A stretch of DNA of 42,262 bases from positions 1 through 42,262 of the forward strand of contig JAQMWT010000678.1 in assembly GCA_029834535.1 (NCBI GenBank), given 5' to 3'. The notes under the pieces are model-generated. The model ran no database searches. It had not been told where the DNA came from and saw only the letters and a list, made by a program, of their open reading frames with translations. A program made the translations under genes and the position numbers. Of this stretch, positions 16,658 through 40,584 are shown in pieces; position 1 is the first letter of the stretch; each line of letters begins with the position of its first letter. Origin of the DNA: Chrysophaeum taylorii (lineage: Eukaryota > Sar > Pelagophyceae > Pelagomonadales > Pelagomonadaceae).

Positions 16658-18106
<1,449 letters not shown>

Positions 18107-18509: not shown

Positions 18510-18917
18510 TCTCTAGGTTTGGACCCAGTCCGGTACTGGTAGAGAAACGTCCTCCGAAAGACATCGATCTCGATCGACGTCTCGGACAAAGGCTCAGGAT
18601 TTCCAGGCAAGAGCAATCTCCTGAAGTTCCTGAAAGTTTTAATTAAGACCGTAGTCAAGTTTCATCGCTTGCTACTGGTGAAAAAGTGTGAAAAGTGTGA
18701 AAGGCAACCAACAACGCGCAAAACGCAACCCCGAAAACTAGAGATAGCAAATCTGAACTAGGGTTAGTACCCCCTGTTCTAGGGTTAGTTCACTTAACTT
18801 TGCCACCTTTGATTTAAGAAAACGCTGTGTTATTAACACCGGCTGTCCTCGATTAAGAGACAGATTCGAGGAGAGACTACCACTGTTCTCACACTCTGGT
18901 GAAGGGCAATACAGTCG
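18510..18917 (+). other. Element-A leader region with a partial duplication
   Basis: TACTGTTCTCTAGG at about 18,505, followed by CAGGATTTCCAG near 18,596, is repeated at 19,461-19,512 just before gag. The leader or 5' UTR is therefore partly duplicated or comes from two nested copies. No gene is visible between 18,640 and 18,917. Confidence 0.4.
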
Positions 18918-19472
18918 TTATTACTGTTCTCTCGCTAACCGTTGGTTGCGATGGAGGACGGCGCCTAACACGCTTGCTCCCTGCGGCGCCCCGGCCGTCC
19001 CGGAGTGAGACGGTGCCTGCTCGCCTCCCGGGCTGGCCGGTTAGCACCCGGAAAGTCCGCGCTGGGATGGGGTTCGCTCGGTTGGGCAGAACGCGACGGA
19101 CAGGTCGATTGTTCGTGGACCGACACGTTTGCGGCCTGCGACGCTTTTGCACGACTTCGCACAAGACCGCGCGCAGCGGCGGTCCGTCATCAACGAGTCT
19201 TCGTCCCTCGCCTCAGCCCCAACTGCGTGATTTTCCTCTGTGATTCCGCAGTGGCGGTCCGCCATCCTCGCACTTTCATCCCTCGCCTCTACCCCAACTG
19301 TGTGATTTTTGCTCTGTGATCCTGGACCGGCTACTGCCGGCCCAGCCTGGCTCCCATGCCCGGGAGAGGTCCGAAGTTAGTTTAGCTAGTTATTTCGGAT
19401 CGGCTCCTGTCCGGCCTGGCTCCCATGCTCGGGAGAGGTCTGAAGTTAGTTAGTTAGTTATTACTGTTCTCT
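18918..19472 (+). mobile_element. (TTAG)n-tailed retroposon, copy S3 (full length, tandem 3' module)
   Basis: 525 bp (18,933-19,457) flanked by the perfect 15-bp repeat TTATTACTGTTCTCT at 18,918-18,932 and 19,458-19,472. It begins CGCTAACCGTTGGTTGCGAT, as S2 does. The 3' module (CTCCC/GGGAG stem-loop, GAGGTC(T/C)GAAG, TTAG units) occurs twice in tandem, ending near 19,385 and at 19,457. This suggests insertion of one copy at the tail of another or template switching. Confidence 0.9.
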
Positions 19473-19553
19473 AGGTATTGGGCAACAGTCCCGGTATCAG
19501 CAGAGTCCCAGGATTTCCAGACAAGTCAAGTTCACTGACGTTCCTGTACCAAA

Positions 19554-21745
19554 ATGCCGACGAAACAAGAACTCCAGAAGGAGATAAGAGAGCAAGAAGC
19601 TCGTTTAGAAGCCAAGTGCCAAAGAGACATGCAACAGCAAGCTCGAGCGTACGAATCTCGGCATCAAAGGGAGATGGCAGCCCAAAAACAAGACATTCAA
19701 GACCTTCGCGCCATGCTGAACCAAATGCAAGCAACGCAAGCACCACCACCTGCCGTCGCTGCTGCGGCTCCGCCTCCCACTCCGGCTCAACAAGATCCCA
19801 AGTCTAAGGTTAACACCTTTAGTGACCCCCCTAGCGCCGTCCTCAAGTCGATGGACAACGCTCAAGTCACACCCCAAATGCTTTCGTTTCGTGTCATGCA
19901 ATTGTTCGTCGAACATCTGATGCCTGAAACAGGCATAACTCAATACTTCCGACAGGGCTTCTACACATGGGAATCCGTCCTGCGCGGATCTAACGATCTC
20001 GCTGACGCTCTCCTCCGCCACTGTATCGACGAATACGACAAGGACCCCAACAACCACTCTACCGCCGGGAACACGCAAGATTTCCAATGCCGTTACGTGT
20101 ATTACAAGGGTGTCTACCGCAAGTTCGGCAAACACTTCCTGGACAACGTCTACGAGCCAAAGCTCCAAGCACTCAAGAATCAAGACAAGGACCCGACCGA
20201 TATAACAAAAGGCAAGCTATACCCGATCACCCAACCGCATCTCCAAGGAAAAGAAGCCGACTTCATCGTATATCTCCGCGAGGCCGCACACCCCCTATTT
20301 CCCCGATGCCTACATGCCGGTAGCGACTCCGTCAAGCACCCAGCATACGACGAAATCGATGCACTTGGATCCTCCTACCCGATAGGACTCGAATTCGCGC
20401 TTCAAGTTCGCCCCGCACTCGATAAGCACAAGGGTCAAAACCATATCCATCATGCGCATTATGTTTACAATGCCTTTCTGGACACGCCGTTCAACCCTGA
20501 AATCCATGAGCCAGCTCACTACATCGATTACATGCGTCATGTCCAGCAGCAGCTCCGCCAGATCACCACGGACGCTTCTCTCCGACTTCCCGACGACAAG
20601 ATCCTCGAAGAAATTCACCAAATTCTCCGCTTCAAGTACCCCCCAAGCTTGCTTGACTCCCGCGCCCCAACGCACATTAAGGGCTTTGCACGTCTTGCTA
20701 ACTGTTTGCGCACTCCCAACGATTCGCTGTTACTCGACGAAGACAAGGACGCCATCCACCACCTTCCTAAGCTCATCGCCCGCATCACCGTCATTTCAAC
20801 GTTGGAGCGCAACTTTTGGGCTCATCTCAAGCCTCACCCCACTCTTAACTTCAAGCCTTTGCGCTTCGTTGCGGACTTTCGTCGTCTGCCAACAAAGGAC
20901 AAAGACAACCCACGCTTTCGCTCCCGCCGTCATGGTCTCCACCTCACCGAAGACGATGATGAAACCTCTCCCTCTAAAGACGAAACCCCACCGGACCCCA
21001 TTGAAGCCACCGACCCCGTCGCCGTTTTTCTCACGGAGGCCAATCTTGATCAAGAGGAAGACAATGATCTTATTCACCAACTACACGCCTACCGCAGGAA
21101 GCAAATTTCGCGGCACGTCAAAAAGCCCCCTCCCGGCAAAAGCTTCCTAATCCTCGCTCCCCGTCTTACTACGACGTCAATGACAGTCCTAAGCCCAAGG
21201 CCACCCCTGTCACCCCACCGAAGAACAAGCACCGTCCCCGCGCTCCTCCTGTCACCCCTGACAAACACGAGCACCCGCATCTTCGAAAGGTCACCTTCCC
21301 AACACAACCTCATCCACCCAAACCATCTACTCCAGACCAGCGCTTCAAGGTCTCCCTTCGTGGAGTTCGTCGCAAACTCCAAACCATTCGCAATCTTAGC
21401 CAAGCCGGTCGCCAACATACGTCTAGCTCCGAGCATATGAACAAGCTCATCAACCTCATCGCCACCATTTCCGACGAGATACTTCTTTCCGAAGCCGAAG
21501 CTGACGCCGCCGAATTTCTCCAGATGTTAACGTCCGATCCCCAAGATGATCAACCTGATGAGGACGACGCCGCAACCGATGACCAAGAAGACAATGGACA
21601 TCTCGGCTTCTATGACGATAACGGTCAGCTCGACCTCTACACCGCCGCCATTCCCGACACCCAAGATGAAGAAGACTCCGCCGAAGCCTACGCCAAACGT
21701 CACAATGACTACATGCGTGCTCTCCACAAGAGTCCGCTTTTTCCC
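19554..21745 (+). pseudogene. Gag of copia element A, frameshifted
   Basis: The ATG at 19,554 opens a frame to 21,440. Residues 1-60 form a charged coiled coil rich in Gln and Glu (KEIREQEARLEAKCQRDMQQ), followed by a Pro/Ala linker and a long helical gag body (about residues 90-470). An acidic and basic tail follows. Near 21,120-21,148 the coding potential moves to the -1 frame (PRSPSYYDVNDSPKPKATP and on through MNKLINLIATISDEILLSEA to 21,745). No canonical slippery heptamer sits in the original frame there, so a simple indel is more likely than programmed frameshifting. It shows no obvious similarity to the gag of B and C and no zinc knuckle. Confidence 0.6.
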
Positions 21746-22881
21746 TGATGGTTGCCGACGACGCCTGTGCCGACAACCACGCCTTACTTCGTCAGGCACC
21801 AAACCTCAAGATGACGAATTTCTCGACTTCATCCACTATCTCCACACGAGTCGCAGATTTTCTTTGTACCACTTACACTCCAGACAAGACCTCAAAGAAG
21901 ACTAGCTCCCTGCACGGATGCAATGGCCCCGGCACAGGAACCTCATTGATTGACGGTGGCGCATCTTTTTGCTTTACGCGCACAATTCAAAATTTTTTTC
22001 CCGAGACCATCCGCCGAATTCCCGAACATACCACTCATATCGGACGAGGCACTCTTACCAGTCACTTTGTCGGCGTTAAGCCGTTATATCTGCAGGCTGC
22101 AGGTCACTCTTCAAAGGATACACAAGACAACACAGGTTACGTGTTATATCTCGTATTTATGGTAGTACCGCAATTTCGACAAGGTCTTCAGGTTATTGCC
22201 ACATCCCAGCTTAAAGCTCTGCATGTCCAAGCAACAGACCCGCCACTGCCTCACGAGCCCTACCTGTATGAGCTCTTAACATCCTCGACCTCAGACACCC
22301 ACGATAACGCCACACTTTTAGGAAAGACCGCCGTCGTACTTGCCGCTCGCAAGCCTAACGGCATGTTGTCCCTGCCATCCCATCCCCGGCAAACATTCGC
22401 CACTGTGGTTAGCTTTCACACAAGAAAACGAATGTCCCTCCACGATGAGATTGCACACATCACAAAGCATGTCGCAAAGACACGCTCACAATCGCACACG
22501 CTTGAATTCGCGAAGTTACAAAACCATTCCATGTATGCTACCGAACTGCTCAACATCAAATCTCCTGTCGTCCACTACGCATTCAATGGCCCCGCAGACC
22601 TCTCTATGCAAACACAATCCCCTCTGCTCAAAACAGCCATTATTGCCGGTGGACTTCACCAAGAAGGTTTCGACACTTTTCGCAAACGATTCGACAAACG
22701 CCTAACTGTCGTAGTTACCTGCGAAATCAACGATATCTTGCGCACCCGTGCGCAACACCTCTTTCCGCATGCCAAGCACTATGCGGACCTCAGAAAACTC
22801 AATGTCGCACTCCAAACCGGCAAAATAAGACTCCCTACATTCGACCTCGCAGTTTTTACATTGCCCTGTCAGCATCTTTAA
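21746..22881 (+). pseudogene. Element A protease plus N-terminal half of the C5-methyltransferase
   Basis: An open frame from 21,748 (best supported from about 21,905) encodes an aspartic protease segment with SLIDGGASFCF (catalytic D at 21,952; D-G-G-A replaces the usual D-S/T-G-A). It continues without a break into a methyltransferase fold: motif I-like AIIAGGLHQEGF (from 22,636), motif II VVVTCEINDIL with RAQHLFP, motif III-like HYADLRKL, and motif IV FDLAVFTLPCQ, in which the catalytic Cys is codon TGT at 22,867-22,869. Retroposon S4 then interrupts. Fusion of PR and MTase in one frame shows that the enzyme is part of the polyprotein. Known family: C5 DNA methyltransferases use this Cys to attack cytosine C6. 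Confidence 0.75.
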
Positions 22882-23241
22882 CTAACTAACTAACTTCAGA
22901 CCTCTCCCGAGCATGGGAGCCAGGCCGGACCGACAGGAGCCAGTCCGGAATCACGGGCCTGTAGACGAGGAGCGCCGAAAGGTCGGTCAGCGGAGAGTGA
23001 CCATCAAGCTTGTCGCCATGCGACGAGGAGACCGCGATGTGACTGACAACCAACTCGTCGATAACCTTCCGTCTTCGCCCCCCGACCATACCCCGTCCCG
23101 CTGCGAACGTTCCGGCTGCCAACCGGCCCGCCCGGGAGGCGAATAGGTGCCAACCTACGCCGGGAGGGCGGATGCCCTCGCAAGGCTCAGGATTCATGAG
23201 GCACCGTCCTCCATCGCAACCGCAGTCGGCGATCAACATCT
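22869..23241 (-). mobile_element. (TTAG)n-tailed retroposon, copy S4
   Basis: Minus-orientation copy (22,878-23,232) ending at its sense 3' end in the CTCCC/GGGAG stem-loop and four or so TTAG units. The flanks TCAGCATCT (22,869-22,877) and TCAACATCT (23,233-23,241) are a 9-bp target duplication with one mismatch. Both encode the same residues, so the methyltransferase reads PCQ-HLSVMKEYDGF without the insert. Its body diverges from S2 and S3 in the middle, so there are subfamilies. Confidence 0.8.
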
Positions 23242-23858
23242 CAGTGTAATGAAAGAATACGACGGTTTTGACACTCGGGTCACCGCCGACCTCTTTGTCA
23301 ACGAGCAACTCCGCTTCGTTCGTTGCACGCTCCCGACTTATACCAATGTCGAGAACGTCCCTCCCAACCCCCGAACTCGCCAAGAATATGCTCAACTCGC
23401 CAACGTTTATCAGCGCTTAGGCTACTTCCGCCATTCCGGCGTCTACAATGCCTCTGCTTTTGGTGATGTCATCAGCAAGACGCGCTATCTCGCTGTGTAT
23501 GCCCGGTACCCGCTCACCGGCTACACCCTCGAGAAAACCGCATCCCCTTGGTTAACCTCGCCTCCGAGCATGCTTCATTTCCTGGATCTCAGTCCCACCA
23601 TCCCTGACGATCTCTGGATCGCCAAACCCGTCCTTCGTGGTAAAGTGCCCCGTTCTACATTGCACTACTACCAGCACAAGGCCACCTACTCCTACAAGCC
23701 CGCAAACGCCTCGAAACTCTCGATTTCCGAGAATGCCCGCATCTACCAAATGCTCGCACGTCTCACCAAGCCCTACAAGCCCGCAAACGCCTCGAAACTC
23801 TCGATTTCCGAGAATGCCCGCATCTTATCTGCCAAATGCTCGCACGTCTCACCAAGCC
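23233..23858 (+). pseudogene. Element A C5-methyltransferase, middle part
   Basis: Resumes motif IV (QHLSVMKEYDGFDTRVTADLF, equivalent to PCQ-x-FS...D-x-R-x-x-L). Motif VI follows as YTNVENVPP (the Glu of ENV at 23,351-23,353), then LGYFRHSGVYNASAFG. Motif VIII is ISKTRYLAVYA, in which the later Arg of the QxRxR signature is kept but the Gln is not. The target-recognition region begins with IPDDLWIAKPVLRGK. An 81-bp tandem duplication at 23,692-23,858 with a 5-bp insertion in its second copy shifts the frame. The ORF start at 23,147 lies inside S4 and is not a real start. Confidence 0.75.
23692..23858 (+). repeat. 81-bp tandem duplication in the methyltransferase
   Basis: The unit CTACAAGCCCGCAAACGCCT... 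is repeated directly from 23,692 and 23,773. The second copy has about 5 extra bases (ATCTTATCTGCC against ATCTACC), making it about 86 bp and breaking the frame. It is a recent disruption of the coding region. Confidence 0.85.
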
Positions 23859-25470
23859 CTTCACGGATCTCGGTTTAGATGCCGGCGGCACCCCCTACGC
23901 CACAATGGCGTCCATTTCCCACCTACTGGTTTTCACTCTCCTCCACAGCCATTTGTCGCAACACCCCACTCTCGTCGCTTGGAATACCATCCGCTGTTTT
24001 CATGCCTCAGAGTCTCAATGTGCTTACCATTTGGATGGAGCCATCACCGGCACCGCCGCTACTGCCGTCGCATGCGGATACTTCTCGCGCGCCTCCCTCA
24101 CCCTACATTCCAGGCCCCCTCAGATTTTGGACTGTTCCCATCAACCCGCAGTCTTCACCCCAACGCACTCCTTTTCCCTGGATGTTCCCAAGGGCACCGC
24201 CTTTCTGGTCGTCGCTTACACCACCTCCTTGGCCGCCGCTCACAGCTGTACGCATCCGTCCACTTGGGTCCACTATGTGAATCATTCGCATCCTGGTTTT
24301 GCCGCGATCAACTCACAAGGGCGAATTTCTCTCGATGAAGCCAAGGGACTCGTAATGTCCAAAGCACGTCCCACTTACGCGGACTATGTCGGCCACATCG
24401 GAGACACACTTCAGAAGAGCACCAAGTGCTACTCGGTTACTGGCTCGTACCCAACCAACACGAGCTACTCCAATGCCTTGCTGCTGATCTCTCCAGACCA
24501 CATACGTTACGCGACCCTCAACGAAATCGCAAAGTTTGGACACCACTCGGACCCGGAACTGCTCCGACTATTCAAACAGCACCCGCCGTACTTCGCGTTC
24601 AAGGCACTGGCCAACGCCGTCCCGCACCACATGTTGCAGGCAAAGTACAGCGCTGTCCTAACATTCCACGAATCGTACCAACACGTGAACCTCCACGTCG
24701 AATGGGCTACAATACGCTATGGCATCCCCAGCCCTGGAGATATCCACCAGGTTGCAGAATTCTTCTCAACCATCTCCAGCCGCCTCCTAGCAGAGGAAGA
24801 CCTGAACCTCACCTCCCTCTTCAATGCCGTTGCAGATGCTCACCATGATGCGATCCGCAAACCAAGCAAATCGACAAACCTCGAGACGCTTCTGGCCGAG
24901 GCAACCGTTGCTAAGATCCGAGTCGATAAGCGACCCAGCCCCCCCAGCGCTTCGACTGCCGCTCTGCCTCCCTTGCACCAGCCCGGCACCACTCAGCACG
25001 CCGAAAGAGTGCTTTTGGTCACTCGCTGGCACCGCATATACCACCAGCAACCAGAGATTCTTCGCCGCACCATTGCCGCTAACGTAACGAATCTCCGCCC
25101 AGGTGATGATCGGTATCTGCAAGACTGCAGCGAGTGCAAGCGCTGTCAATCGCATGTCAGTTTCCGCCACCAGAACACCTCCTGGTCACAGGACGAACTG
25201 GCCTACGCCCCTGGCCAACACATCCACATGGACGTGTCATACCCGAGCATCCACAAGTGCTACGGCGGATTTCGCTACATCATGCACTTCGTGTGTATCA
25301 TCTCAGCACACAAATGGGTCTATTTCCTACGGAAATTAGACGCACAAGATGTTCTGGCCGGCATCCTCTATGTGGTTATCGTGATCAAAGTCGAATTTAA
25401 TGTCCACGTGAAGATCATATCCTCTGACGCATTCTCGACTTTTCGCTCTGAAGCCTTCCACCCTCTCAAG
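23836..25470 (+). pseudogene. Element A methyltransferase C-terminal half and integrase (truncated)
   Basis: A single open frame runs from the rest of the target-recognition region to the late methyltransferase motifs: IRYATLNEIAKF (motif IX, R-x-x-T-x-x-E) near 24,505 and ALANAVPHHML (motif X, G/A-N-A-V-P) at about 24,602-24,637. It continues into a copia integrase: zinc finger WHRIYHQ ... CSECKRC (about 25,028-25,145), core Asp in HIHMDVSYPS (about 25,225) and second Asp in IISSDAFSTF (about 25,430). Alignment with the integrase of element C ends at about 25,470, before the catalytic Glu. The remaining open frame to 25,659 is unrelated sequence. The recognition region is long (about 330 residues). 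Confidence 0.75.
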
Positions 25471-25733
25471 GTGCAGCTTGGTCTCGTATACCTAAGCAAG
25501 TTAGGGGCATTAGCGTCAGGGTTGATGGTGATTTTAGAAGCATCGACGTTAAAGCTTGCCATATGCTGCATGAGCGCCTCTTTGAGCAGCTTGTTAATAG
25601 CAATGGACTTTCCAAGGCGGAGGATGATAGCTCTCATGTGTGCAGCAGGATCATTATAACATGAGATGAAAGGATTGTTGATTACTGCGAATCAACGCTA
25701 TTCCGTGATGGGATAGATTGCACATGACGCAAA
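25471..25733. other. Unassigned AT-richer segment downstream of truncated integrase
   Basis: Open on both strands over about 200 bp (minus frame SIAINKLLKEALMQHMASFN), but with no recognisable motif. It separates element A from the next gene. Confidence 0.3.
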
Positions 25734-26960
25734 TCAACGGCGAAGGGGGGAAGTAGCGGACCCTGCCTCCGATGACTCCAGGTCCATAGCCACAGGCCCA
25801 GGAGGTGTGGTGTCAGTGGGCGTGGGGGAAGACCTGCGGCGACGGGAGTGGTGTCGGTCTGGTCCGGGTGCGGGAGGAGGGGAATCCGGCCCCATGTCCG
25901 TGGACGGTGGAGTGGTGAGCTCCTGTCGGCGCTGACGACGAGGACGCGGAGCATGCGGACCTGAGGACGTATCCGAGGTTGCAGGAGACTCCGCACGAGG
26001 GGCGGACTCCTGTTGGTGCCGGTGGGGAGGATGAGGAGCAGGCGTGGCTGGGGGCGCAACCGAGGGTGCCGGTGATTCCACACGGGGGGCGGACTCCTGT
26101 CGGCGTCGATGGCGAGGCCGACGAGCGGGTGTGGCTGGGGGTGGCTCCGAGGTTGCAGGTGACGCCGCACGAGGGGCGGACTCCGAGGCAGCTCCACGGG
26201 GATTGCGATGTTGCTCGTAAGGGAGAAACGCGTCAAGAGCAAGGACAATGGCCACGGAAGTGGCATGGCGCGAAACAAAAGCGACGCGTTTGAAGAAGGT
26301 GGCGAAAGGCCGCGGGACATGACCGTAGACTCTGCGTGCCTCGGCGTGCGCGAGAATAAGATAACCATAGACGGCAGGGCACCGGGCGGATCGATGCAAA
26401 GGATCACGCTGAACCGCACGGCGGAGCGACCAGAAGCCGCGCATGAGACGCAGCTGGGCCGCCCGCGAGTAGCAGCAATGGCGGTGGCAACGATGATGGC
26501 GGTGGGCGAGGCGGTGACGAGCACGTGCGTGTGACATCCGCACGAGCGTGCTTACCAAGTTGCAGAGGGCGGTAAGAGGTCCAATACAAGCGGCCTTGAA
26601 GGGTGCGCAAGGCAAAGAGTTGCAGGCGGTGGCTACAGATGAGCCGGCAGCAGCAGCTTGCGAGATAGTGACCATACAACGCTTAACCAGGAGGAGAGTC
26701 AAGAGCCGCACTAACGTAAGCACAGTAAAGCCTATGGGGAACATGAGACGCTGGGGCCAAAAGTAATCGACGTCGGTGGGGAAGACATCGAGCCGCTTGA
26801 CGCCGCAGGAGACCTGGACCGAGAGCGAAGGCCAAACACGGAATGGATGACTCGCGGGGGCTGATGGCGAGCTGACAATGAGAAAAATGGCGAAGATGGT
26901 GGAAAGGAGCAGGAGACGCCGGAAGCACGAGAAAGCCAGTCCCCGACTGCCCGAAGCCAT
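25734..26960 (-). CDS. Unknown membrane protein with Arg/Pro-rich repeat tail
   Basis: 408 residues from an ATG at 26,960 with a textbook Kozak context (GCCACCATGG). The open frame continues upstream into repeat sequence, but this ATG is preferred. Residues 1-36 are a signal peptide or anchor (FRRLLLLSTIFAIFLIVSS), and a second hydrophobic span follows near residues 85-108 (FPIGFTVLTLVRLLTLLLV). The middle is Cys/His/Arg-rich. From about residue 275 three or four imperfect repeats of about 35 residues occur (ESAPR-x-ESPATS-x-PPATPA then an Arg-rich stretch), followed by an acidic end (MDLESSEAGS). I recognise no family. It sits between truncated element A and a Helitron copy and may be a host gene or a captured fragment. 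Confidence 0.45.
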   Translation of the reverse strand: MASGSRGLAFSCFRRLLLLSTIFAIFLIVSSPSAPASHPFRVWPSLSVQVSCGVKRLDVFPTDVDYFWPQRLMFPIGFTVLTLVRLLTLLLVKRCMVTISQAAAAGSSVATACNSLPCAPFKAACIGPLTALCNLVSTLVRMSHARARHRLAHRHHRCHRHCCYSRAAQLRLMRGFWSLRRAVQRDPLHRSARCPAVYGYLILAHAEARRVYGHVPRPFATFFKRVAFVSRHATSVAIVLALDAFLPYEQHRNPRGAASESAPRAASPATSEPPPATPARRPRHRRRQESAPRVESPAPSVAPPATPAPHPPHRHQQESAPRAESPATSDTSSGPHAPRPRRQRRQELTTPPSTDMGPDSPPPAPGPDRHHSRRRRSSPTPTDTTPPGPVAMDLESSEAGSATSPLRR

Positions 26961-26989
26961 GGTGGCGGGACTTGCGTCGGCTATGACAA

Positions 26990-27086
26990 CCCGTGTGGAG
27001 CGGTTTGTCTTTAAATGTCGACTGCTAAGAGGGGGGTGTGTGTGGGGAGCATGAAGGATGTGGGTGGGTTTGTCGTTAAATGTCAA
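26990..27086 (-). repeat. L-type retrotransposon tail fragment
   Basis: The minus strand reads CATGCTCCCCACACACACCC, then CTCTTAGCAGTCGACATTTAAAGACAAAC, the same 3' tail as L1-L4. It is preceded by TTGACATTTAACGACAAACC next to the Helitron H5 end. Here the tail lies upstream of the ORF start at 26,960 instead of downstream of a gene. Confidence 0.7.
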
Positions 27087-27983
27087 CAAGTGCAGGCCAG
27101 TAAGTTCACCTAGTCCCAATCTCTAACCCCAGCAAGTTCACCTAATCCCAATAAGTTTCATATAAGTTCACCTGGTCAGTAAGTTCACCTAGTCCAAATC
27201 TCTAACCCCAGTAAGTTCACCTGGTCCCAGTAAGTTTCATATAAGTTCACCTGGTCAGTAAGTTCACCTAGCTCACACCCACTCCTTCGAGCTCGTCGCT
27301 CTCGCCTCCGCCAATCTAAGCTGCTTTGATCCGCACACGCCGCTAACCTTTGAGTTTACTCTAAAACCCTCAGTAAGTTCACCTGGTCCCAGTAAGTTCA
27401 CCTGGTCACTCAGTTCACCTAGTCCCAATCTCAAACCCAGTTCACCTGGTCACTCAGTTCACCTAGTCCCAATCTCAAACCCAGTAAGTTCACCTGGCCC
27501 AGTAAGCTCACCTACAGTGCGCGTGTAGACGCCGGGAGGGGGCTTATCGGTATCTGGTACCGTTGCAGTGGCCGTGCGACGGGTCGAGGTTGCGAAGACT
27601 TTAAGCTCGCGATCAAAGTCAGCATGCCGTTGGCTGTCAGGGAGTTGAAAACTCGACTGTAAAGAGCGAGGCGTCGTCTTCCGACCCAACCTAGTCGGCC
27701 GAAAAGAACTCCGACGCCTCGTCTCCGGGAAAAAAAGGCCGCGGTCGCGCGCGCGTTGTCAGCATCGACAGCATCGTTTCGACGGGGCGTGGGAATGGCG
27801 CGCTGAAAGAGCCGCCGCGGGTCGTGAAAATAGTCTGCGAGGTCGCCGTAGACGGCTTGGAGGATCACTGTCTGGCTCTCGCGCCTACCTGATCCTTACT
27901 CTCGCGCCTACCTGATCCTTACCCTAAATCGAGGGACAAACAAACAGACAAACAGACAAACATCTGTCGATTAGTAGTTAAGA
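27087..27983 (-). mobile_element. Helitron-like element copy H5 with an internal deletion
   Basis: Sense 5' end TCTTAACTACTAATCGACAG at 27,983 and 3' end CCTGCACTTG at 27,087. The helicase region (about 27,525-27,870) has lost the TINKSQGQT / LYVALCRS block: sequence jumps from GGGGGCTTATCGGTAT directly to CTGGTACCGTTGCAG. The repeat-rich 3' part is longer than in the other copies. Both flanks are L-type tail sequence (CTCTTAGCAG plus TCTTA on one side, TTGACATTTAACGACA on the other), the same target position as H4. Confidence 0.75.
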
Positions 27984-28069
27984 TAAGACTGCTAAGAGGG
28001 GGGTGTGTGTGGGGCATGAAGGATGTGGGTGGGTTTGTGGGGTATGAGGGATGTGCCTGCTGGGTGGGT
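27984..28069 (-). repeat. L-type retrotransposon tail fragment between H5 and H6
   Basis: The minus strand reads CACACCCCCCTCTTAGCAG with CCCACATCCTTCATG upstream. It is the tail region of an L-type copy disrupted by the Helitron-like copies. Confidence 0.65.
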
Positions 28070-32433: not shown

Positions 32434-32940
32434 GCGGGTCCCTGAGAAACCATGTGTTAATACGTGCACGTAACCTAAGGGTTTTGGACTGTTACCGCGC
32501 CGGTTCAGCCTCGCCACGTAAACACGCTTGTCAATATAACGCCATTACCATTGGGCTGTATATAACATATTTTGCACACGGGATCGTGTAACCTTGTGTG
32601 TCCCTGTTCATAGTATCGTACTGTCATGTCAATGTTGATGTGTGTGTAATTGGCTAACCTGTACTCTTGCACTCATGTTATGGAATATTTTGGGTACGTC
32701 CACTTGTACATTCCATGGCAATGCACTTAACAAGCTCCTTGAGAGCACCAAAACTAACCAGCTGCCTGAGTGACTACGCTTAGCGACACTACTCTGGACT
32801 CACAGCTTGCACAGTCGTCAAATAGACATTTTTTCCATCGAAAACGATGAGTGTACATAGACACCGATAGACAGACCCCCTTCGAATGTCTAGACAGTGT
32901 CAACTGCGTGACTGAACCCACAGGTTCCCCGTCAACTGCT

Positions 32941-34494
32941 ATGGCAGAACACGCAGCACGAGCCGCACCCAAGGCGATCACAGGTGAGGATATATTGAAG
33001 CTCGAAGCTCCTGTAGTTGAGTTTCTTAACGATGGAAATCGATTTCAGCTTCAGACTCGCAAGGTATCCTTGCAGATCAAGCATATTAAGCAATTGTTAC
33101 GGTCCAGTCATGCCGATGCCTTCCTCGAGTACGACTCGTACGAAGCTTATACTCGGTCATGCAAGGACTACGAGATCCTCCGGAATCAAATTCTCGATCG
33201 CGTTTTCCTGGAATGGAAGACCGATAGGGCTGCTGATCTCCGTTTAGCTGTTGATGAATTGCCCCCTGAGTATCATGAATGGCATTTCACCAATGAAGCT
33301 TTCCCCAACTTACCTGATGCAGAAGTAGCTCAGCTAGCTACTGTCTGTTACGACTATGAAGTCAAGGCATTACGTCCTGAAATCAATGCTCGTTTCTTAG
33401 AAGAGGAACGAATCTTAAATCGTGCGCACCCGAAGGCATTAGCTTTCGACACCCGTGTTCGTGCCCCGGTTACCATGTTTTCGTTAACTGCAGCTGACTG
33501 GCACACTTACCAGAACACGTACGCTACATTCTTGCATACGTACTTCAATCTTGAAAGTGATCGAAAACCGGCGCTTGCGGCCTGGCCCGCCATCAGTGAG
33601 GTATATAACAAAAGTTATTTACCCAACACGGCTCGAGCTATTATGCTCATCGCCTTTAGTCACTACGAGTCTGTTACGACTACTGATGTGTCCTATTTGA
33701 AACAGCAATTCAACTCTGTTGTTTATAATCCTAACTGGTATGTCCATGTATTTATCGAAGCTGTCCTTGCATTTAGGCAAATCTCTTACCAACTTAACCA
33801 GGAAGAGACTGACCTTCAATTCGACTTTGGCACTCTTTGCATAAAAATCTATGAAGAGATACATCGGCATTATGCCGATAATACCAGCAACAACCGTTAC
33901 GATCGTGGTTGGGTAGATTGGTGTTATATGTACGAAACCCGATCTTCATCTCGACCTGTACCAGAAGCTGAACGATTGTGTCACCCTACCAACCCTAGCT
34001 ACATCTTAGAATACGCATTAGATCTTTGCAATGTAGTATCAAATGGGTCGAACAAAAGACGCTTAGAACGCCCTGTTTCTTGGCAGCCCTATGTCGAAGG
34101 TTTATCATCTCAACCAAAGCCAAAGTTACTACTTACACACACTTTGGACTCATCAGACAAAAGTCTGACTCAAACTGCTAACACACTCGCCTTCATCACT
34201 TCGCCCCAGCCTGGTACATCTTCCACGTTCAATGCTAGACGCTTGCGTAACTCTAATGATGCTCGCCAGCCTTTCTCTCGCAGCGATTTATCGTATTATC
34301 GTCCTGGTGATTCTTACGTCACCAAGAAAACTGCCGGACAGTCCCATGACCGTCCAATTTACCCCCGCACTTTTGACAGGTCCTCTCGGTCCAACATGAA
34401 ATTATTAGATCGAACAAACCACACCTTAAAGACCCTGCGAGAACAGTGTAGCGAACTCACGAAGCATGTGACAGAGAATGATACCACGGCTTAG
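32941..34494 (+). CDS. Gag of copia element C
   Basis: 517 residues from the ATG at 32,941 (the frame is open 90 bp upstream but without an earlier ATG). The helical body contains YDSYEAYTR, FNLESDRKPALAAWP and NWYVHVFIEAVLAF, shared with element B. The C-terminal third is Ser/Arg-rich. No CCHC knuckle is seen. It ends at a TAG (34,492-34,494) after a heptad-like stretch (TLKTLREQCSELTKHVTEN). The same frame continues open after the stop for 405 codons, with more helix-like sequence, so the TAG is either a readthrough site or a recent mutation. Confidence 0.75.
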   Translation: MAEHAARAAPKAITGEDILKLEAPVVEFLNDGNRFQLQTRKVSLQIKHIKQLLRSSHADAFLEYDSYEAYTRSCKDYEILRNQILDRVFLEWKTDRAADLRLAVDELPPEYHEWHFTNEAFPNLPDAEVAQLATVCYDYEVKALRPEINARFLEEERILNRAHPKALAFDTRVRAPVTMFSLTAADWHTYQNTYATFLHTYFNLESDRKPALAAWPAISEVYNKSYLPNTARAIMLIAFSHYESVTTTDVSYLKQQFNSVVYNPNWYVHVFIEAVLAFRQISYQLNQEETDLQFDFGTLCIKIYEEIHRHYADNTSNNRYDRGWVDWCYMYETRSSSRPVPEAERLCHPTNPSYILEYALDLCNVVSNGSNKRRLERPVSWQPYVEGLSSQPKPKLLLTHTLDSSDKSLTQTANTLAFITSPQPGTSSTFNARRLRNSNDARQPFSRSDLSYYRPGDSYVTKKTAGQSHDRPIYPRTFDRSSRSNMKLLDRTNHTLKTLREQCSELTKHVTENDTTA

Positions 34495-35712
34495 CTACAA
34501 CACAATATCGACAAATTATTTGAGACTCTATTGCAATCAGCTGACATTCTGTCAACCACATCAACTGAGGACAACCGTAACTTACTTCGTCTAAACGAAC
34601 AACTCATGTTCGCAGAAGACATCATTTGTGATGTAGACGTTCATCTATCCTCAACCGAAAAGTCGTTAAACTACGTGGAGCCACAACATCTTACTGTTGC
34701 TACTGCTCCCACCCCAAAGGCAACTCCTCCTACTACAGACACGCAGGGTAATCCCTCCAATATTGTGCCTAACTTCTTTACCGCTTCCGCCAGCTCGGCT
34801 TTACCACCAGCGTTACTGTCCTCGCTATCTTCACAGGTCCAATCTGCCCTCAACCAACCACCACAAGCCGAAACCAAAAGGGATGCCGATCATACTTCGC
34901 TATCATCATTTGATAAAAAGCACGGCATTGCTGATGAGGCTGACGAACCATCACCACCTGTTCAGCCGATTGTCATTCCAGCTCTGTTATTGCTGGAGAA
35001 CTTCTTCACAGCCAGCCTCTCCACTACTTGCCCGCATTCGGAAAACGCCTTCCTCACCAACTACATGAAGGTAAACAGTGTCCCTCCACATTGTTCCTTT
35101 CTATATTTTGACTCTTGTGCTACCATCTCATTGCTGTCCACTTACGATTTTGCAATACCAAATCATATTATTCCACTGGACTCCAAATACGCGCCGATTG
35201 TTATTCAAACTGCCACTGGACAACAACGTGCCTCACACATGATGTTAACGCGTAACATCGTTGTTCCCCTACCAGATCATCCACAAGTTGGCTATGTTAA
35301 GATCGACTTCGCTTTATGTCTTCAGCCAGTGCACGACCGACATCTCGCTATCCTGAGCATGCTCGAGTGGAACCAGACGATCCTGACCACTGTGTTCAAT
35401 GATCGAGCTGAGCCAAAGCTCAGCGCTGTCACGAGCCGCGTAGACAAAGATGTACGTATTCCCATACACTACATAGCTGCTAATTTACCTGCTCCCCCTT
35501 GTCTCACCTACAACATCGCTCGCGACAAGCAACTCGAACTTCGTTCCCTCGCATTTCCGCTCAAGCGATACCATGAAAACAGGGATCTACTGGCATACTA
35601 CAACTACCTAATCAAAAGAGTTTTACCAGATCGCCCGTGGATTCGCCCTTTGGTTCTCAATCTTCGGAAACAGAACAAGTTTGTTCAGCAAAACACACCG
35701 CCATTAACCTGA
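34495..35712 (+). pseudogene. Element C aspartic protease region
   Basis: In frame with gag beyond the TAG. A helical start (LFETLLQSADILSTTSTEDN) and a Pro/Thr-rich linker lead to FLYFDSCATISLL, a copia-type protease active site (D-S-C-A-T in place of D-S/T-G-A-T, catalytic Asp codon at 35,110). YVKIDFALCLQPVHDRHLAI LS-type sequence follows, resembling the later protease strand. It ends at a TGA (35,710-35,712), after which the same frame again stays open into the methyltransferase. Protease cuts the polyprotein into its parts. The Gly-to-Cys change next to the Asp is unusual and might reduce activity. Confidence 0.6.
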
Positions 35713-36231
35713 ATACTCTCACGCCCAGTGTTTCTCTCACAAGAGTCCAATCTCCGCAAACCCTCTGTCATGTTACTTTGTTCTGGTTTGTCAACTCCGG
35801 CGTTCCTGTCTCAAGCCACTAATGACTTAGGCTTAAATATCAATGTAAAAGTTGTTGTTGAGTCTGATGATACGCTTGTTCGCATGTTACGCCACCGTTT
35901 CCCTACTGTATTATTTGAATATCTCCCCGCCTTTATTAACCATCTTCACCTAATTTCACCAGAGGAAAGGCGCAAATTCTATTGTGATATAATTGATATC
36001 ACTCCTCCCTGCACGAACATGAGGCTACTAAAGCAGCATAAGACGGAAGACTTACACAGCCTGCTGGACGATTCTCTTTTCGACAGCATGCTGTCTGTCA
36101 TCAAGTTACTCCAGCCCTTGGTACTACTGGCTGAGATGGCGCCTCCGCATAAATACTGTCATCAAGACCGCATCACAGTGGCCAATCTCATCCATACTAC
36201 ACTCGATTATCGATTACTGTGTCGATGTTGT
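35713..36231 (+). pseudogene. Element C C5-methyltransferase, N-terminal half
   Basis: In frame with the protease after one TGA. Motif I-like VMLLCSGLSTPAFLSQATND (from 35,767), motif II VVVESDDTLVRMLRHRFP, then YCDIIDITPPCTN (motif IV; catalytic Cys codon TGC at 36,010-36,012), and SVIKLLQPLVLLAEMAPP (motif VI, with AEM in place of ENV). This is the canonical order of C5 DNA methyltransferases: S-adenosylmethionine pocket first, catalytic loop next, and the Glu that contacts cytosine after it. The domain then shifts frame by +1 near 36,195-36,220. Confidence 0.75.
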
Positions 36232-37758
36232 TGATAGGCTCCCGACATACCTCTGTGGCGACTACCAATCTAGAGAAAGATGGATATGCATCGCACGCAG
36301 GTATTCTACTGGACCAATTAAATTATTGTCGTGGCCTATCCTCCATCCACGCCCCTTCCTAAAGATCGTGGATGATCTACAAGCTATTCCCAAGCGCCTT
36401 TGGCTACCTAAACACGTATCCAAAGACTGGATCCGGGTGTTCCCCGATCCTCCATATATCCCCGTTCCTAAGACGTTTGCACCTTACTCTCGCACAGGTG
36501 CTGTTCAGCTTACTATGGCTGACCTTGAATCCCTCAGTATGTTACTGCTTCGCCTTCACTCACAACAGGCTCACGAGCAGCGTACTCACTCTGTTCAATC
36601 CGAGTGTACTTATCATCAGCTGTGCTTTAAACGCTCCTCTATGGAGCCGCTACCTAATGCAACCTACCCTATACACGTCAAGGTTTTTACAATCCTCTAT
36701 AACTTGTTTGCCAGATTACACACTAACTCACCCACTCCTGTGTCCTATTACATAACCGTTTTCGAAACTAACCAACCGTCAGACAGGTTACTACTTACAA
36801 CCTCATCAACATCTCACAACTCCCACTTCTTAACTGGTGGCCACCACTCTGACGGCCACCTCACCATAGAGAACCCCACCACCAAATATCATGCTTCTAT
36901 TGGCGCGTTTGGAAGCACGTATACGTTCACTGCTTCCGACATTCCCCGCGACCGCGACAGGTCCATATACTTGGAGCCGTTTGTGGGTTACTTGTGGATA
37001 GTCCAAGCCCTTCCCCAAGTTGGCTCCGCTGCCACCTATGGAACCGCCATACAAAACCTCGTGTCCAGATGCTCTCTTGTGATGCCTGGCTGCCTTACCT
37101 ACAAGGCCACCGCCAACTCTTTCGACTACAAGGATTCTCATTTTGTTCTGGAAGATCACCACTTATCTCATAGTCGCTATATAGGGTATCCTCGTGGAAG
37201 TGACCGCAAACTCGGCTCTAAAATCCACTCAATGCTTGCTCCATTGCCAACCGTCCGAGGGTACGCCAATATTATTTTACTCGACCCCCGCAACGGGAAA
37301 TTACGCTACCCCACTCGACCGGAGTTGATTCGTGCTAACAACCACACCAAACAACAGGAATCCTTCCTCTTGTCTCTACGCCATGACCTTTGCTGTGACA
37401 TGCACAGCAATGCTCTGCCTGCCGGTACGTACAGCACTTTGTACAAGCAGCTTTCGCTCATCGTCGCCGATATTAAATCCCTTATGTTGGACCCTACCTT
37501 CCAACATACTGCTGCCGTGACGAAGAAATCCTATGTGTCCAATTTCATGACCGTTGACCAAGCTTCCACCACGTGCAGCACAGATACCTTGTCTTTGGCA
37601 CAATCTTTTATGATGTCTATTTCCAGCAACTACTTGACCGAAATGTCGTTAAACTATATATCTTCGTCCTACGAAGATACTCTCGCTACTCGTGATGATG
37701 AGGACGCACCTCCAAGTGACCCTGCTGCGCACCAGGATGACGACGCACCGCCCCCCCC
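36203..37758 (+). pseudogene. Element C C5-methyltransferase, C-terminal half
   Basis: In the next frame the sequence reads YLCGDYQSRERWICIARRY (about 36,250-36,310), an excellent motif VIII (Q-x-R-x-R). A long target-recognition region follows, sharing with element A the block IPKRLWLPKHV (IPDDLWIAKPV in A). Near the end come LRYPTRPELIRAN (motif IX, R-x-x-T-R-x-E-x-x-R; about 37,303) and DMHSNALPAGTY (motif X; about 37,396). A Ser/Asp/Pro-rich linker leads to the integrase. The recognition region is about 350 residues, long for the family, and equally long in element A. Confidence 0.75.
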
Positions 37759-39179
37759 CTGCCTCAGACACCGAACTCAAGTTCGATGTTCGGCGCAAAC
37801 GGCACATTCCCGCTCATCCAATTCCTCGTAAGTCCCTCGCACACGGATCCACCGAATATCTCAATGCCAAAGAACGTGCTAATCGCTTTCACCGGGTGCA
37901 TCACTGCCCCGACAACGTCGCTGCCAAGGCCCCCAACGTACTTGCTCGCCCTGGATTCTCTGCTTCTGACATACCATATCGCGACTTATGCACCGACTGC
38001 ATCGCACACAACAAGCGCCACCCGCACAAGCATTTCAATGCGACCAAGCCTTCTTTTGAGCAAACTCACAAAGCCGGCGAAGTCTGGGCGTGCGACGGCG
38101 GCTATGTGACCATCCCATCCGAATGGGGAGGCTTCACACATATCATCGTCTTCAAGGAACTCATTTCGAAATTTCTCCTGGTGTACTTTACACGCACCAC
38201 CAACGCCACGGAGTTCACTCAAGCTCTGGATTTTGTGTATGACTTCTGTCGTACACAACTCAACGTGCACATGCGCACCCTCTACTCCGATGCATTCAAG
38301 CCCTACTTTAGCCAGCACACTACCTCCCCGTACCGCGTCGATAAGGGCATTCAACTCATTGCCTTCCCGCCGTACATGCACCACTTTAACTTTGAAGTTG
38401 AGTCTGCCATCGGTTTCATCGCCTCCGCCTCCTCAACTCGCCTTCGTTCTCTCCTTAATGCTCACTATCGTGGCGCCAAGATCGTGGAACCCGCAATCAT
38501 TTTCCCATGGGCGGTGATACACACCGTTCAAAGCTATAACCTTCTCCCGAACGCCACGCTCGAGCGCATTCATCATGCTATTCTGAGTCCGCAACAGCTA
38601 CTCTACAACCAACTCAGCACTCCCCAACACGATATGCTCAAGATTTTTGGCGCTGAATGTTACCTCCTATTGGAGCCCCATGAGCACCACAGGTGGGAAC
38701 CGTGCCGCCGCAAATATCTGTATATCTGTTGCGCCAACGCGCAAAACCCGCTCGTCTCCCCACGCGTCGACCATCTCGCTGACGTCCTCCTCAACCCTGA
38801 AAACGGACAAATTCGTGTTTCGTCCAAGCTGCAATTCCTCTACATGTTGCAGCATCCTACTCCTGATCCTGAACTAGCTCCTCCGCCTCACGCCCTTCCG
38901 CGCCTTTCTCGCTCACACCCCACACCACTATCCAAGACCATGTCATTCAGAGGGGGACAAGGACTCCTCATCCTCAGAGGGGGCACTCCCCACCTCCTTC
39001 AGCTCCTTCTTCGTCCCCTACTCCTGCCTCTTCCCCCTCTTCTGACGCTCTCGCCGACGATTCTGGCTCTACGTCACCGCCGCCCTTGCTTCCTTCTTAC
39101 AAAGAATTTTTTGCACAAGATGACCTCATTCTTGTCCCAGGTTCCAAACAGCCTAACACTCGCAAGGCCACTTCTATGA
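37759..39179 (+). pseudogene. Element C integrase
   Basis: The frame changes at a run of nine C residues (37,751-37,759), a likely slippage site. The integrase zinc finger is RFHRVHHCP ... LCTDCIAHNK (H-x3-H, C-x2-C, about 37,884-38,005). Catalytic residues are Asp in VWACDGGYV (about 38,091), Asp in TLYSDAFKPY (about 38,288) and Glu in FNFEVESAIGF (about 38,398), a D-D-E set. The C-terminal domain contains FGAECYLLLEP and RRKYLYICC, typical of the copia IN end. After about 38,900 the frame is Pro/Leu-rich and probably shifted. Integrase inserts the cDNA into the genome. Confidence 0.8.
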
Positions 39180-40307
39180 AAACTATCCGAGCCCGGTTAC
39201 AAGCGTCTACTATTTGGTGCTCACAAAGCCGCTGGTGGCAAGCTCGCCGATTTCCGCTGGGATCTTCGCCACCACTTTCTTACGTTCAAGTCCTCCGCCC
39301 TCTCCGCCCTTCATCTCAGTGGTGGTATCCTCTGGTCTGCTATCTGCTCAGAGCGGGAACATGCGCTGTTAGCTCGTCTTCTTCTCCCGATGCGCACTGA
39401 CTTACTTGCCCGCTACCCGCTCGTCGATGGTTACTTCGCCCACGCCAAGTGCGCATCCAGCATCCCAGCTGCAACCTTTTTAACTGCTGATGGTTCACCT
39501 ACGTGCCCCATTCCTCAGCCCCTTTTATCTGCGTTCACTGAACACGCTGCTGCCTTTGGCACCTCTTCCTTACAATATGCACTTACGTACCTGGCGCCGA
39601 CCAGCTTTATTGATCACAACTCCTCCGAGTTTGGCGCTACTTCTGCATCTCTGGCTGACTTGGAGGAATACCTTCTGGTCTCTACAGAGTTTATCACCCA
39701 GGTCTTACGTACCGACCCTACTATCCATATCCAACTGGAATCTGCCCCTACTACTCCTACTGACGCTGTTTCCGCTTATCCCGAAGTTGCGCACACTGCC
39801 TCGACCGCAACGTCGCTAAACTATAATTCACCAGCCATTGTTGGTCCTGACGAATATAAGGTCCAAGAAGCTGACGTTTCCATTGACGAATATAAACTCA
39901 AGTGCCTCCACGGTTTGTCGCCTGAAAACAGGCACGCCTACCTCAAGGCCATCGCCAAGGAACTCCACGACATTATCCGCTTTGGCTGCTTCAAACCTTC
40001 CTTACCCGACGGTGACTCTCGTCCTATTGACTGCAGGATGGTGCTGAAGATTAAAACAGACTCTGCAGGCAAATACGTCAAGCACAAGGCTCGCCTCGTG
40101 CTACGTGCCTTCCTAGCATCTCTTGGCGCCGATTTCTTTGGTACCTTCAGCCCCATGGCCACCATGACCGCAATCCGGGTACTACTAGCTATTGCAGCAT
40201 ACAAGCAATTGCCTGTCTACCATGCAGACGTCCCGAACGCCTTCGTTCAGTCTGACATCGATGCCAACGTCTATGTTCAGTTACAGCATCGAGCTTATCG
40301 ACCCTGA
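39180..40307 (+). pseudogene. Element C reverse transcriptase, N-terminal half
   Basis: From about 39,230 the frame LARLLLPMRTDLLARYPLVD leads into the copia RT domain: AIAKELHDIIRFGCF, IDCRMVLKIKTDSAGKYVKH, KARLVLRAF (K-A-R-L-V, family signature), FGTFSPMATMTAIRVLLAIA and YHADVPNAFVQSDI (first catalytic Asp). The frame then stops at 40,307, because the sequence shifts by +1 just after VYVQL near 40,270-40,280. Fragment D shows the same shift at the homologous place. Confidence 0.75.
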
Positions 40308-40584
40308 TGACACTAAGTACAAGGGCCGACGTCTACCGAAACTGCTGAAGTCACTTTATGGACTTCGGCAATCACCATCCCTTTGGAACAAAGAGATAGA
40401 CGGCTTCTTCCGTGGCCTTGGCTACAAACGCCTGCATTCGGACTCTTGCCTATATGCTCGAGTATCCGCACATGCTAAGCTCGTCGTATGCAGTCTGTCT
40501 GTAGACGACATTGTTATTGTGTCCAATGACGACCCTCTTCGTACTGAATTACAGGACTCTGACGACAATCATTTACAGGATTGA
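40270..40584 (+). pseudogene. Element C reverse transcriptase, palm segment (3'-truncated)
   Basis: In the next frame: ELIDPDDTKYKGRRLPKLLKS, LYGLRQSPSLWNKEIDGFF, GLGYKRLHSDSCLYARV, VCSLSVDDIVIVSND. The catalytic YVDD of copia RT is SVDD here. Fragment D has the same SVDD, so it is a family trait. Similarity to D ends after TTACAGGA (about 40,556). The thumb and RNase H of element C are missing. Confidence 0.75.

What the first reader, a model, noticed from the sequence alone, without database searches (positions are those of the whole stretch)
22636..24640. C5 cytosine methyltransferase domain built into a copia polyprotein (element A)
Between protease and integrase, element A encodes the ordered C5-MTase motifs: AGGLHQEGF-type motif I, CEINDIL, TLPCQ + HLS with downstream D-x-R, NVENVPP, NASAFGD...TRYLAVYA, IRYATLNEIAKF and ANAVPHHM. 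It is fused in one frame with the protease upstream and with the integrase downstream, so it belongs to the element. A retroelement carrying its own DNA methyltransferase could methylate its cDNA, hide from host restriction or sensing, or manipulate host silencing. I recall retrotransposon-borne DNMTs being reported in dinoflagellates and charophyte algae. Whether this lineage and this PR-MTase-IN position are known I cannot tell.
Basis: partly seen in the sequence, partly recalled or inferred. Interest (0 to 1): 0.92.

Follow-up and report, generated by a model that had tools for sequence, protein, structure and literature searches.

The report
Copia retrotransposon carrying a DNA methyltransferase
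A selfish copy-and-paste DNA element, found in many copies in what is probably an alga's genome, carries an enzyme domain that looks able to put methyl marks on cytosine; the copy in this window is broken, but sister copies are not, and this adds a further kind of element to the few known to have taken up such an enzyme.

Summary
Element A (19,539-25,500) encodes gag, a protease-like stretch, a C5-cytosine methyltransferase (MTase; motifs I-X at 22,639-24,633) and an integrase. The window copy is not one frame: an insert of about 355 bp and a partial duplication split the MTase over three frames. Sister copies in the same 70.8-Mb genome run protease-MTase-integrase in one frame. All 13 aligned (uninterrupted) copies match PF00145 (best E 6.4e-10). 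At least 154 MTase pieces lie in the genome. The catalytic Cys stands in 36 of 36 loci examined. The MTase core is the most constrained stretch measured (dN/dS 0.18; protease 0.34, integrase 0.31). Element B in the same window (copia reverse transcriptase) has a diverged MTase at the same place; that homology rests on motifs, spacing and shuffles, not on a profile hit.

MTase-bearing retrotransposons are known as LINE, DIRS and Gypsy; Copia with the MTase between protease and integrase looks like a new variant, though one 2025 paper mentions 'LTR Copia' in passing. Most likely the enzyme methylates the element's own cDNA (inferred). No excess CpG decay was found between copies. No structure was predicted; element A's reverse transcriptase and LTRs were not seen.

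The parts
19539..21440 (+). Element A, gag-like ORF (633 codons, stop to stop)
   Evidence: Open frame. No Pfam gag match; named gag by position only.
21709..22881 (+). Element A frame holding the protease-like stretch (IDGGASFCF at 21,949-21,975) and MTase motifs I, II and IV
   Evidence: No Pfam protease match; protease named by a D-x-G-A-type motif (recalled) and by position.
22639..22878 (+). MTase N part: motif I IIAGGLHQEGF, TCEIND, motif IV TLPCQHL with catalytic Cys (22,858-22,878)
   Evidence: aligns to sister copy L014 (L009 piece 63-1232, 176 bits).
22878..23233 (.). Insert of about 355 bp that breaks the MTase; its left part is an inverted copy of a repeat at 19,316-19,460; the flanking CAGCATCT (22,870-22,877) and CAACATCT (23,234-23,241) look like an 8-bp target-site duplication
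   Evidence: Inverted arms 19,409-19,460/22,879-22,930 (52 nt, 100%) and 19,316-19,382/22,888-22,954 (67 nt, 87%); site letters; sister copies such as L014 have no insert here.
23234..23776 (+). MTase middle: end of motif IV, motif VI VENVPP (23,348-23,365), motif VIII SAFGDVISKTRY (23,453-23,488)
   Evidence: PF00145 16 bits, below cut-off, in this copy; matches L014 at 341 bits.
23683..23825 (+). Partial tandem duplication (62-nt units, 95% alike) inside the MTase; the reading frame changes after it
   Evidence: family D5.
23824..24798 (+). MTase C part: long stretch between motifs VIII and IX (possible target-recognition region), motif IX IRYATLNEIAKF (24,502-24,537), motif X LANAVPHHM (24,607-24,633), and the start of the linker to integrase
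   Evidence: Matches L014 at 692 bits; motif places. Not reached by the Pfam profile; motifs IX and X are assigned by eye.
24964..25500 (+). Integrase N part: RWHRIYHQQ (25,024), CSECKRC (25,126), MDVSYP (25,228), SSDAF (25,420); the element breaks off near 25,500
   Evidence: PF00665 rve 19.5 bits, E 0.0012, below its cut-off; aligns to element B's integrase, z 25.5, 0 of 1000 shuffles.
32851..40550 (+). Element B, a second copia-type element, in several frames
   Evidence: RVT_2 (PF07727) 65.3 and 51.6 bits at about 40,014-40,533; rve 18.8 and SH3_retrovirus 19 bits, both below cut-off.
35773..36147 (+). Element B MTase-like N part: motif I LLCSGLST, VVESDD, motif IV ITPPCT, motif VI LAEMAPP
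   Evidence: motif I G to Cys 75 residues, Cys to Glu 41. No Pfam match.
36257..37420 (+). Element B MTase-like C part: motif VIII GDYQSRERW, LRYPTRPEL, SNALP
   Evidence: aligned to element A with z 4.87, 0 of 300 shuffles. No Pfam match; hhalign not significant.

Best explanation
Element A is a broken copy of a high-copy Ty1/copia-type LTR retrotransposon whose polyprotein is gag - protease - C5-cytosine MTase - integrase (- reverse transcriptase - RNase H, inferred). The MTase is an established, selected part of the element. Most likely it is made as part of Gag-Pol, carried in the virus-like particle next to reverse transcriptase and integrase, and methylates cytosines of the element's own double-stranded cDNA before or during integration, so that incoming DNA resembles host DNA or escapes destruction of unmethylated or foreign DNA. 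Shown here: domain identity, place in the polyprotein, repetition, conserved catalytic residues, purifying selection. Inferred: enzymatic activity, the DNA substrate, packaging, and the benefit. I put membership (copia-type element with a C5-MTase domain) at about 0.93 and cDNA methylation as the role at about 0.4; the figure below is for the whole statement.
For: PF00145 in 13 of 13 aligned copies, best E 6.4e-10, member 1 at 34.5 bits against a cut-off of 22. TIGR00675 also in 13 of 13, but member 1 scores 33.8 bits against that model's cut-off of 100.65. 57 places over the PF00145 cut-off in the genome; two are host genes (L001, L002), and by eye each of the other 55 overlaps a place listed. 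At least 154 MTase pieces (1402 candidates, 150 scored, so a lower bound). One open frame protease-MTase-integrase in L014, L013 and L010. Catalytic Cys in 36 of 36 loci, motif VI Glu in 35 of 36, motif VIII Arg in 35 of 36. dN/dS: median 0.24 over 91 pairs of 14 copies; by region over 8 copies, MTase I-VIII 0.177, IX-X 0.234, integrase 0.305, middle stretch 0.332, protease stretch 0.343, linker 0.598. Element B has an MTase-like stretch in the same place. Precedent: two SymbioDIRS DNMTs methylated CG de novo in yeast, and the authors propose cDNA methylation (PMC5890265).
Against: No activity, expression or methylation data. No structure. The Pfam match covers motifs II-VIII only (profile 39-163 of 324). 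The best PDB match of the profile, although a cytosine-specific MTase (8yf3), has E 0.77; single-sequence PDB search gave nothing relevant. hhalign of A1 to element B, host DNMT5 and host DNMT2 was not significant (the profile has Neff 1). Motif VIII of element A reads SKTRY, without the usual Q-x-R-x-R (recalled). Copies show no excess of transitions at CpG: 18 at 196 sites (0.092) against 51 at 513 other C/G sites (0.099) (one search agrees), so lasting CpG methylation of integrated copies is not evident. Against that, the two host loci have higher CpG o/e (1.26, 1.46) than the 36 element loci (0.99-1.25), which is weak and confounded by composition. In the published yeast test the SymbioLINE and KnitGypsy DNMTs showed no activity, judged inconclusive by the authors. 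Reverse transcriptase, RNase H and LTRs of element A were not seen.
Confidence: 0.5

Rival explanations
1. The MTase acts on host chromatin rather than on cDNA: it methylates DNA at or near new insertions or rival elements, altering silencing to the element's gain, or damping its own spread so the host survives.
For: The MTase adjoins the integrase in the polyprotein, which could bring it to target DNA. PMC5890265 discusses both host-epigenome effects and self-damping.
Against: No CpG-decay signature in integrated copies. No methylome data for this host.
Confidence: 0.25
2. The MTase acts on RNA: genomic RNA in the particle or the tRNA primer, as DNMT2 acts on tRNA.
For: C5-MTases of the DNMT2 type act on tRNA (established; host DNMT2-like gene L001); PMC5890265 raises RNA methylation for SymbioLINE DNMTs.
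Against: Element A's motifs are not DNMT2-like by eye, and no primer-binding site was seen.
Confidence: 0.12
3. The fold is kept but no longer catalyses; it serves as a DNA-binding or structural part of the polyprotein.
For: Motif VIII lacks Q-x-R-x-R in element A and motif I is AGG rather than the usual F-x-G-x-G (recalled); Pfam reach is partial.
Against: Cys in 36 of 36 loci and Glu in 35 of 36, with the catalytic half the most constrained stretch measured.
Confidence: 0.15
4. A chance join: a host DNMT gene fragment next to, or inside, one copia copy.
For: The window copy is broken and shows three frames.
Against: At least 154 related pieces, one frame with protease and integrase in sister copies, selection, and an MTase-like stretch at the same place in element B. 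The host DNMT5- and DNMT2-like genes are not close relatives.
Confidence: 0.02

Closest known systems
KnitGypsy-Dnmt3, Klebsormidium nitens (PMC5890265)
   Same: LTR retrotransposon with a C5-MTase inside the Pol polyprotein, intronless, under purifying selection (Ka/Ks < 0.2 in the paper).
   Different: Gypsy order and a Dnmt3-type MTase. Here: integrase directly after the MTase, integrase homologous to that of a copia element, and an MTase not assignable to Dnmt3 with the tools used.
SymbioDIRS-Dnmt3, Symbiodinium (PMC5890265)
   Same: MTase in the Pol polyprotein of a cDNA-making retrotransposon; high copy number.
   Different: DIRS element with tyrosine recombinase; Dnmt3 clade. CG activity shown in yeast there, untested here.
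SymbioLINE-Dnmt, Symbiodinium (PMC5890265)
   Same: Orphan DNMT lineage in many retrotransposon copies.
   Different: Non-LTR LINE, MTase in ORF1, no cDNA intermediate free in the particle.
Host DNMT5-like gene L002 and DNMT2-like gene L001 of the same genome
   Same: PF00145 C5-MTases with the same motif order and near-equal spacing.
   Different: Single host genes; no detectable close relationship to the element's MTase.
DIRS elements with Dam-like adenine methyltransferases (as described in PMC5890265)
   Same: Retroelement carrying its own DNA methyltransferase.
   Different: Different enzyme superfamily and methylated base.

Membership tests
C5-cytosine DNA methyltransferase (PF00145) | Significant profile match | tested here: met
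   13 of 13 aligned sister copies, best E 6.4e-10; 57 genome places over cut-off, two of them host genes. The window copy itself is below cut-off.
C5-cytosine DNA methyltransferase (PF00145) | Ordered motifs with catalytic Cys (IV) and Glu (VI) at canonical spacing | tested here: met
   Order and spacing; Cys 36 of 36, Glu 35 of 36 loci.
C5-cytosine DNA methyltransferase (PF00145) | Motif VIII Q-x-R-x-R (recalled) and motifs IX, X | tested here: inconclusive
   Element A has SKTRY (one Arg kept, 35 of 36 loci); element B has QSRER. Motifs IX and X are assigned by eye.
C5-cytosine DNA methyltransferase (PF00145) | Class-I MTase fold with SAM pocket | not tested
   No structure job was run; the tool's stated list of accepted sequences does not include loci from the genome search, and the window copy is split.
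C5-cytosine DNA methyltransferase (PF00145) | Methyl transfer to cytosine in DNA | not testable with these tools
   Needs an assay.
Ty1/copia (Pseudoviridae-type) LTR retrotransposon | Integrase between protease and reverse transcriptase | tested here: inconclusive
   Element A: protease-like stretch, MTase, then integrase, with no reverse transcriptase between. What follows the integrase was not seen. Element B: integrase then RVT_2.
Ty1/copia (Pseudoviridae-type) LTR retrotransposon | Copia-type reverse transcriptase (RVT_2) | tested here: inconclusive
   Met in element B, 65.3 bits against a cut-off of 31.6. Element A's window copy is cut off before it; sister copies could not be fetched. 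Its integrase is homologous to element B's (z 25.5).
Ty1/copia (Pseudoviridae-type) LTR retrotransposon | LTR pair, primer-binding site, target-site duplication | tested here: inconclusive
   No LTR-like direct-repeat pair was reported in 18,110-28,500 or 30,000-42,262 (ungapped, minimum 40 nt); the window copy is truncated.
DNMT-bearing retrotransposons (PMC5890265) | C5-MTase inside retrotransposon coding sequence in many copies, under purifying selection | tested here: met
DNMT-bearing retrotransposons (PMC5890265) | Belongs to a reported class (LINE, DIRS, Gypsy) | tested here: not met
   Integrase follows the protease-MTase block and is homologous to element B's, whose reverse transcriptase is RVT_2.

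The most novel reading that the evidence does not exclude
An old, independent capture of a C5-MTase by Ty1/copia elements, at the protease-integrase junction, in a lineage (probably an alga with a red-type plastid) not among those in print, old enough to have split into at least two strongly diverged families (A and B) that both keep the MTase; the integrated copies show no CpG decay, so the mark may be temporary, on cDNA only, or not at CpG, which would point to a role in the particle rather than in silencing.
Probability: 0.4. Interest if true: 0.78.

Novelty: new variant of a known kind. Interest (0 to 1): 0.62.

Why it matters
Only a few retrotransposon classes are reported to carry a cytosine methyltransferase, and why they do is open. 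A further class (Copia), with the enzyme in another polyprotein place and its catalytic half the most constrained stretch measured, argues that the trait is gained repeatedly and useful to the element. A host of only about 71 Mb with many related copies, some unbroken over the MTase, would make the question testable by comparing methylation of young insertions with and without the enzyme.

Tried and rejected
Chance join of a host DNMT gene and one copia copy: rejected (repetition and one frame in sister copies).

Relatives elsewhere: none among the 8000 best-scoring candidates in two protein searches, one with P0008 region 300-880 and one with alignment A1, and none in viral contigs. The protein database does hold eukaryotes (one search lists Tribonema, Emiliania and fungal proteins), but the search needs shared 5-residue words, so absence is not proof.

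Profile-profile comparison of A1 with element B pieces and with host DNMT5 and DNMT2: not significant (Neff 1). Similarity of A and B outside MTase and integrase: gag z 1.88 (16 of 300 shuffles reach it) and protease stretch z 0.87 (50 of 300), so not supported. The A to B comparison of the MTase N part is modest: local z 2.98 (2 of 300), end-to-end z 2.62 (7 of 300); C part local z 4.13 (1 of 300), end-to-end z 4.87 (0 of 300).

Solved-structure search with element B integrase and reverse-transcriptase pieces: none.

Rows dropped: L003 from A1 because its frame has stops; L028 left out of A1 though used; L020, L003 and L007 left out of the Pfam scan after my wrong-strand coordinates failed; L028 and L038 left out. 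The 14 copies and the 8 were chosen for unbroken MTase frames out of 36 element loci held, so dN/dS is for the better-kept copies, and pairs are not independent.

Not done: structure prediction, 18S identification of the host, and sight of the regions downstream of integrase.
Full report
What is in the window. Element A runs from a gag-like ORF (19,539-21,440) through a protease-like stretch (IDGGASFCF, 21,949-21,975) and MTase motifs I-IV in the frame 21,709-22,881. It goes on with motifs end-of-IV to VIII in the frame 23,147-23,878 and motifs IX-X plus integrase in the frame 23,644-25,659, breaking off near 25,500. The MTase is split by an insert of about 355 bp (about 22,878-23,233). The left part of this insert is an inverted copy of a repeat at 19,316-19,460, and it is flanked by CAGCATCT and CAACATCT. 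A partial tandem duplication follows at 23,683-23,825, after which the frame changes. This copy cannot make the enzyme. Gag and protease are named by position and motif; neither matches Pfam. The integrase matches rve weakly (19.5 bits, E 0.0012, below cut-off).

Is it a C5 MTase? In the window copy the match is below cut-off (16 bits). In the same genome (G000: 70,800,356 bases, 697 contigs) 57 places pass the PF00145 cut-off. Two are host genes. L001 is DNMT2-like (best PDB match 1g55, DNMT2, E 3.9e-39). L002 is a 2,086-aa frame whose MTase relatives in Tribonema, Emiliania and fungi include proteins with SNF2 domains, hence DNMT5-like (my inference; PMC9998398 passages describe ATPase-DNMT5). 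By eye each of the other 55 overlaps a place. A search with the window's middle piece found 154 matches, a lower bound because 150 of 1402 candidates were scored. Fourteen listed rows have open frames of 1,000 aa or more; three of these (C265, C514, C506) have stops inside. Two pairs of rows (C10/C297, C25:52,717/C521:52,713) have identical scores and may be assembly duplicates.

Sister copy L014 reads protease, MTase and integrase without a stop for 1,070 codons and matches PF00145 at 33.3 bits; L013 and L010 give 26.4 and 30.0. All 13 members of A1 match PF00145 (best E 6.4e-10) and TIGR00675 (best E 5.4e-9), the latter below that model's own cut-off for member 1 (33.8 against 100.65 bits). 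The Pfam match covers profile positions 39-163 of 324. Three more pieces gave 28.0 bits (L037), 15.2 bits (L024, below cut-off) and nothing (L033, which begins after motif VI). A profile search of PDB sequences gave one match, a cytosine-specific MTase, at E 0.77, not significant.

Residues and spacing. Over 36 element loci, read as natural ORF pieces, the catalytic Cys is present in 36 of 36. One search counted 35; the exception was the window locus read on the wrong side of its insert, as one search shows. Motif VI Glu and Asn stand in 35 of 36 (L011 lacks both), motif VIII Arg in 35 of 36, and the second G of AGG in motif I in 34 of 34. Cys-to-Glu distance is 40-41 residues in element A, element B, host DNMT2 and host DNMT5.

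Selection. Nei-Gojobori dN/dS over 91 pairs of 14 copies has median 0.24, range 0.12-0.57. By region over 8 copies: MTase I-VIII 0.177, IX-X 0.234, integrase N part 0.305, middle stretch 0.332, protease stretch 0.343, linker 0.598. These copies were chosen for unbroken MTase frames out of 36 loci, and pairs share history; the values describe the better-kept copies. Within that limit the MTase core is the most constrained stretch measured, which is not expected of a passenger.

Element B. The second element (32,851-40,550) has a copia reverse transcriptase (RVT_2, 65.3 and 51.6 bits). Between its protease-side ORF and integrase lies a stretch with LLCSGLST, VVESDD, ITPPCT, LAEMAPP, GDYQSRERW, LRYPTRPEL and SNALP, in two frames. 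No Pfam model matches it and hhalign against A1 is not significant. Alignment to element A's MTase beats shuffles clearly for the C part (end-to-end z 4.87, 0 of 300) and modestly for the N part (z 2.62, 7 of 300; local z 2.98, 2 of 300). The integrases of A and B are homologous beyond doubt (z 25.5, 0 of 1000); gag and protease stretches are not detectably alike. I take B's MTase as homologous and in the same place, at about 0.85.

Class. That element A is copia rests on domain order (integrase directly after the protease-MTase block, no reverse transcriptase between) and on the shared integrase with element B. Its own reverse transcriptase and LTRs were not seen: the window copy is cut short, no LTR-like pair was reported, and the fetch of sister flanks failed throughout because the machine was busy.

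Function. The enzyme sits beside integrase in what is presumably the particle's polyprotein. The most economical role is methylation of the element's own cDNA, as proposed for SymbioDIRS elements, whose DNMTs methylate CG in yeast (PMC5890265, section 5 part 1 and sections 4, 9, 10, 11 read; other passages). I looked for a trace of methylation: private changes show no CpG excess (18 transitions at 196 CpG positions, 0.092; 51 at 513 other C/G, 0.099; one search agrees). The two host loci have higher CpG o/e (1.26, 1.46) than the 36 element loci (0.99-1.25), a weak hint the other way and confounded by base composition. So lasting CpG methylation of integrated copies is not supported; a temporary mark, another context, RNA as substrate, or no activity remain open.

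Literature. PMC5890265 reports LINE and DIRS carriers in Symbiodinium and a Gypsy carrier in Klebsormidium, and says Symbiodinium Copia elements lack any DNMT domain. [quoted passage not shown] this may be a slip for Gypsy or may rest on its supplement, which I could not read. Six searches of a library of open-licence PMC papers listed no description of a Copia element with a C5 MTase between protease and integrase. Subscription papers are mostly absent; Iyer et al. [quoted passage not shown]

Host. Unnamed. A Cpn10 gene lies in the window (16,182-16,601, 29.7 bits) with a presequence that by eye resembles plastid targeting in algae with red-type plastids; the best named relative of its DNMT5-like gene is Tribonema minus (56%), with fungi and Emiliania close behind. 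Probably a photosynthetic stramenopile; a haptophyte is not excluded.

Verdict. A real C5-MTase domain that is a selected part of a high-copy copia-type element; the window copy is dead. New variant of a known kind.

Noticed in passing
window 32851-40550: Second copia-type element (B) with its own strongly diverged MTase-like stretch at the same place; motif VIII reads QSRER, closer to the usual form than in element A.
   Followed up: partly
window 16658-18106: A perfect GACA repeat of 362 units (1,449 bp).
   Followed up: no
window 16182-16601: Cpn10 gene with a presequence that by eye looks plastid-targeting; possible host gene between repeats.
   Followed up: partly
window 40197-40520 and 41928-42250: Inverted duplication (94-95%) of part of element B's reverse transcriptase.
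   Followed up: no
window 31607-32419: Long imperfect palindrome (arms 90-96% complementary in three blocks) just upstream of element B.
   Followed up: no
window 9423-11979, 15800-16130, 27098-27500, 28698-28821: Repeated arrays of a unit like CAGTAAGTTCACCTGGT (the stretch at 15,800-16,130 by eye) on both strands, flanking several repeats.
   Followed up: no
L002 (G000:C621): Host DNMT5-like gene in a 2,086-aa open frame with acidic runs; L001 (G000:C634) is a DNMT2-like gene.
   Followed up: partly
G000 contigs C10/C297 and C25/C521: Pairs of MTase places with identical scores and near-equal coordinates: the assembly may hold duplicated contig ends or haplotypes.
   Followed up: no
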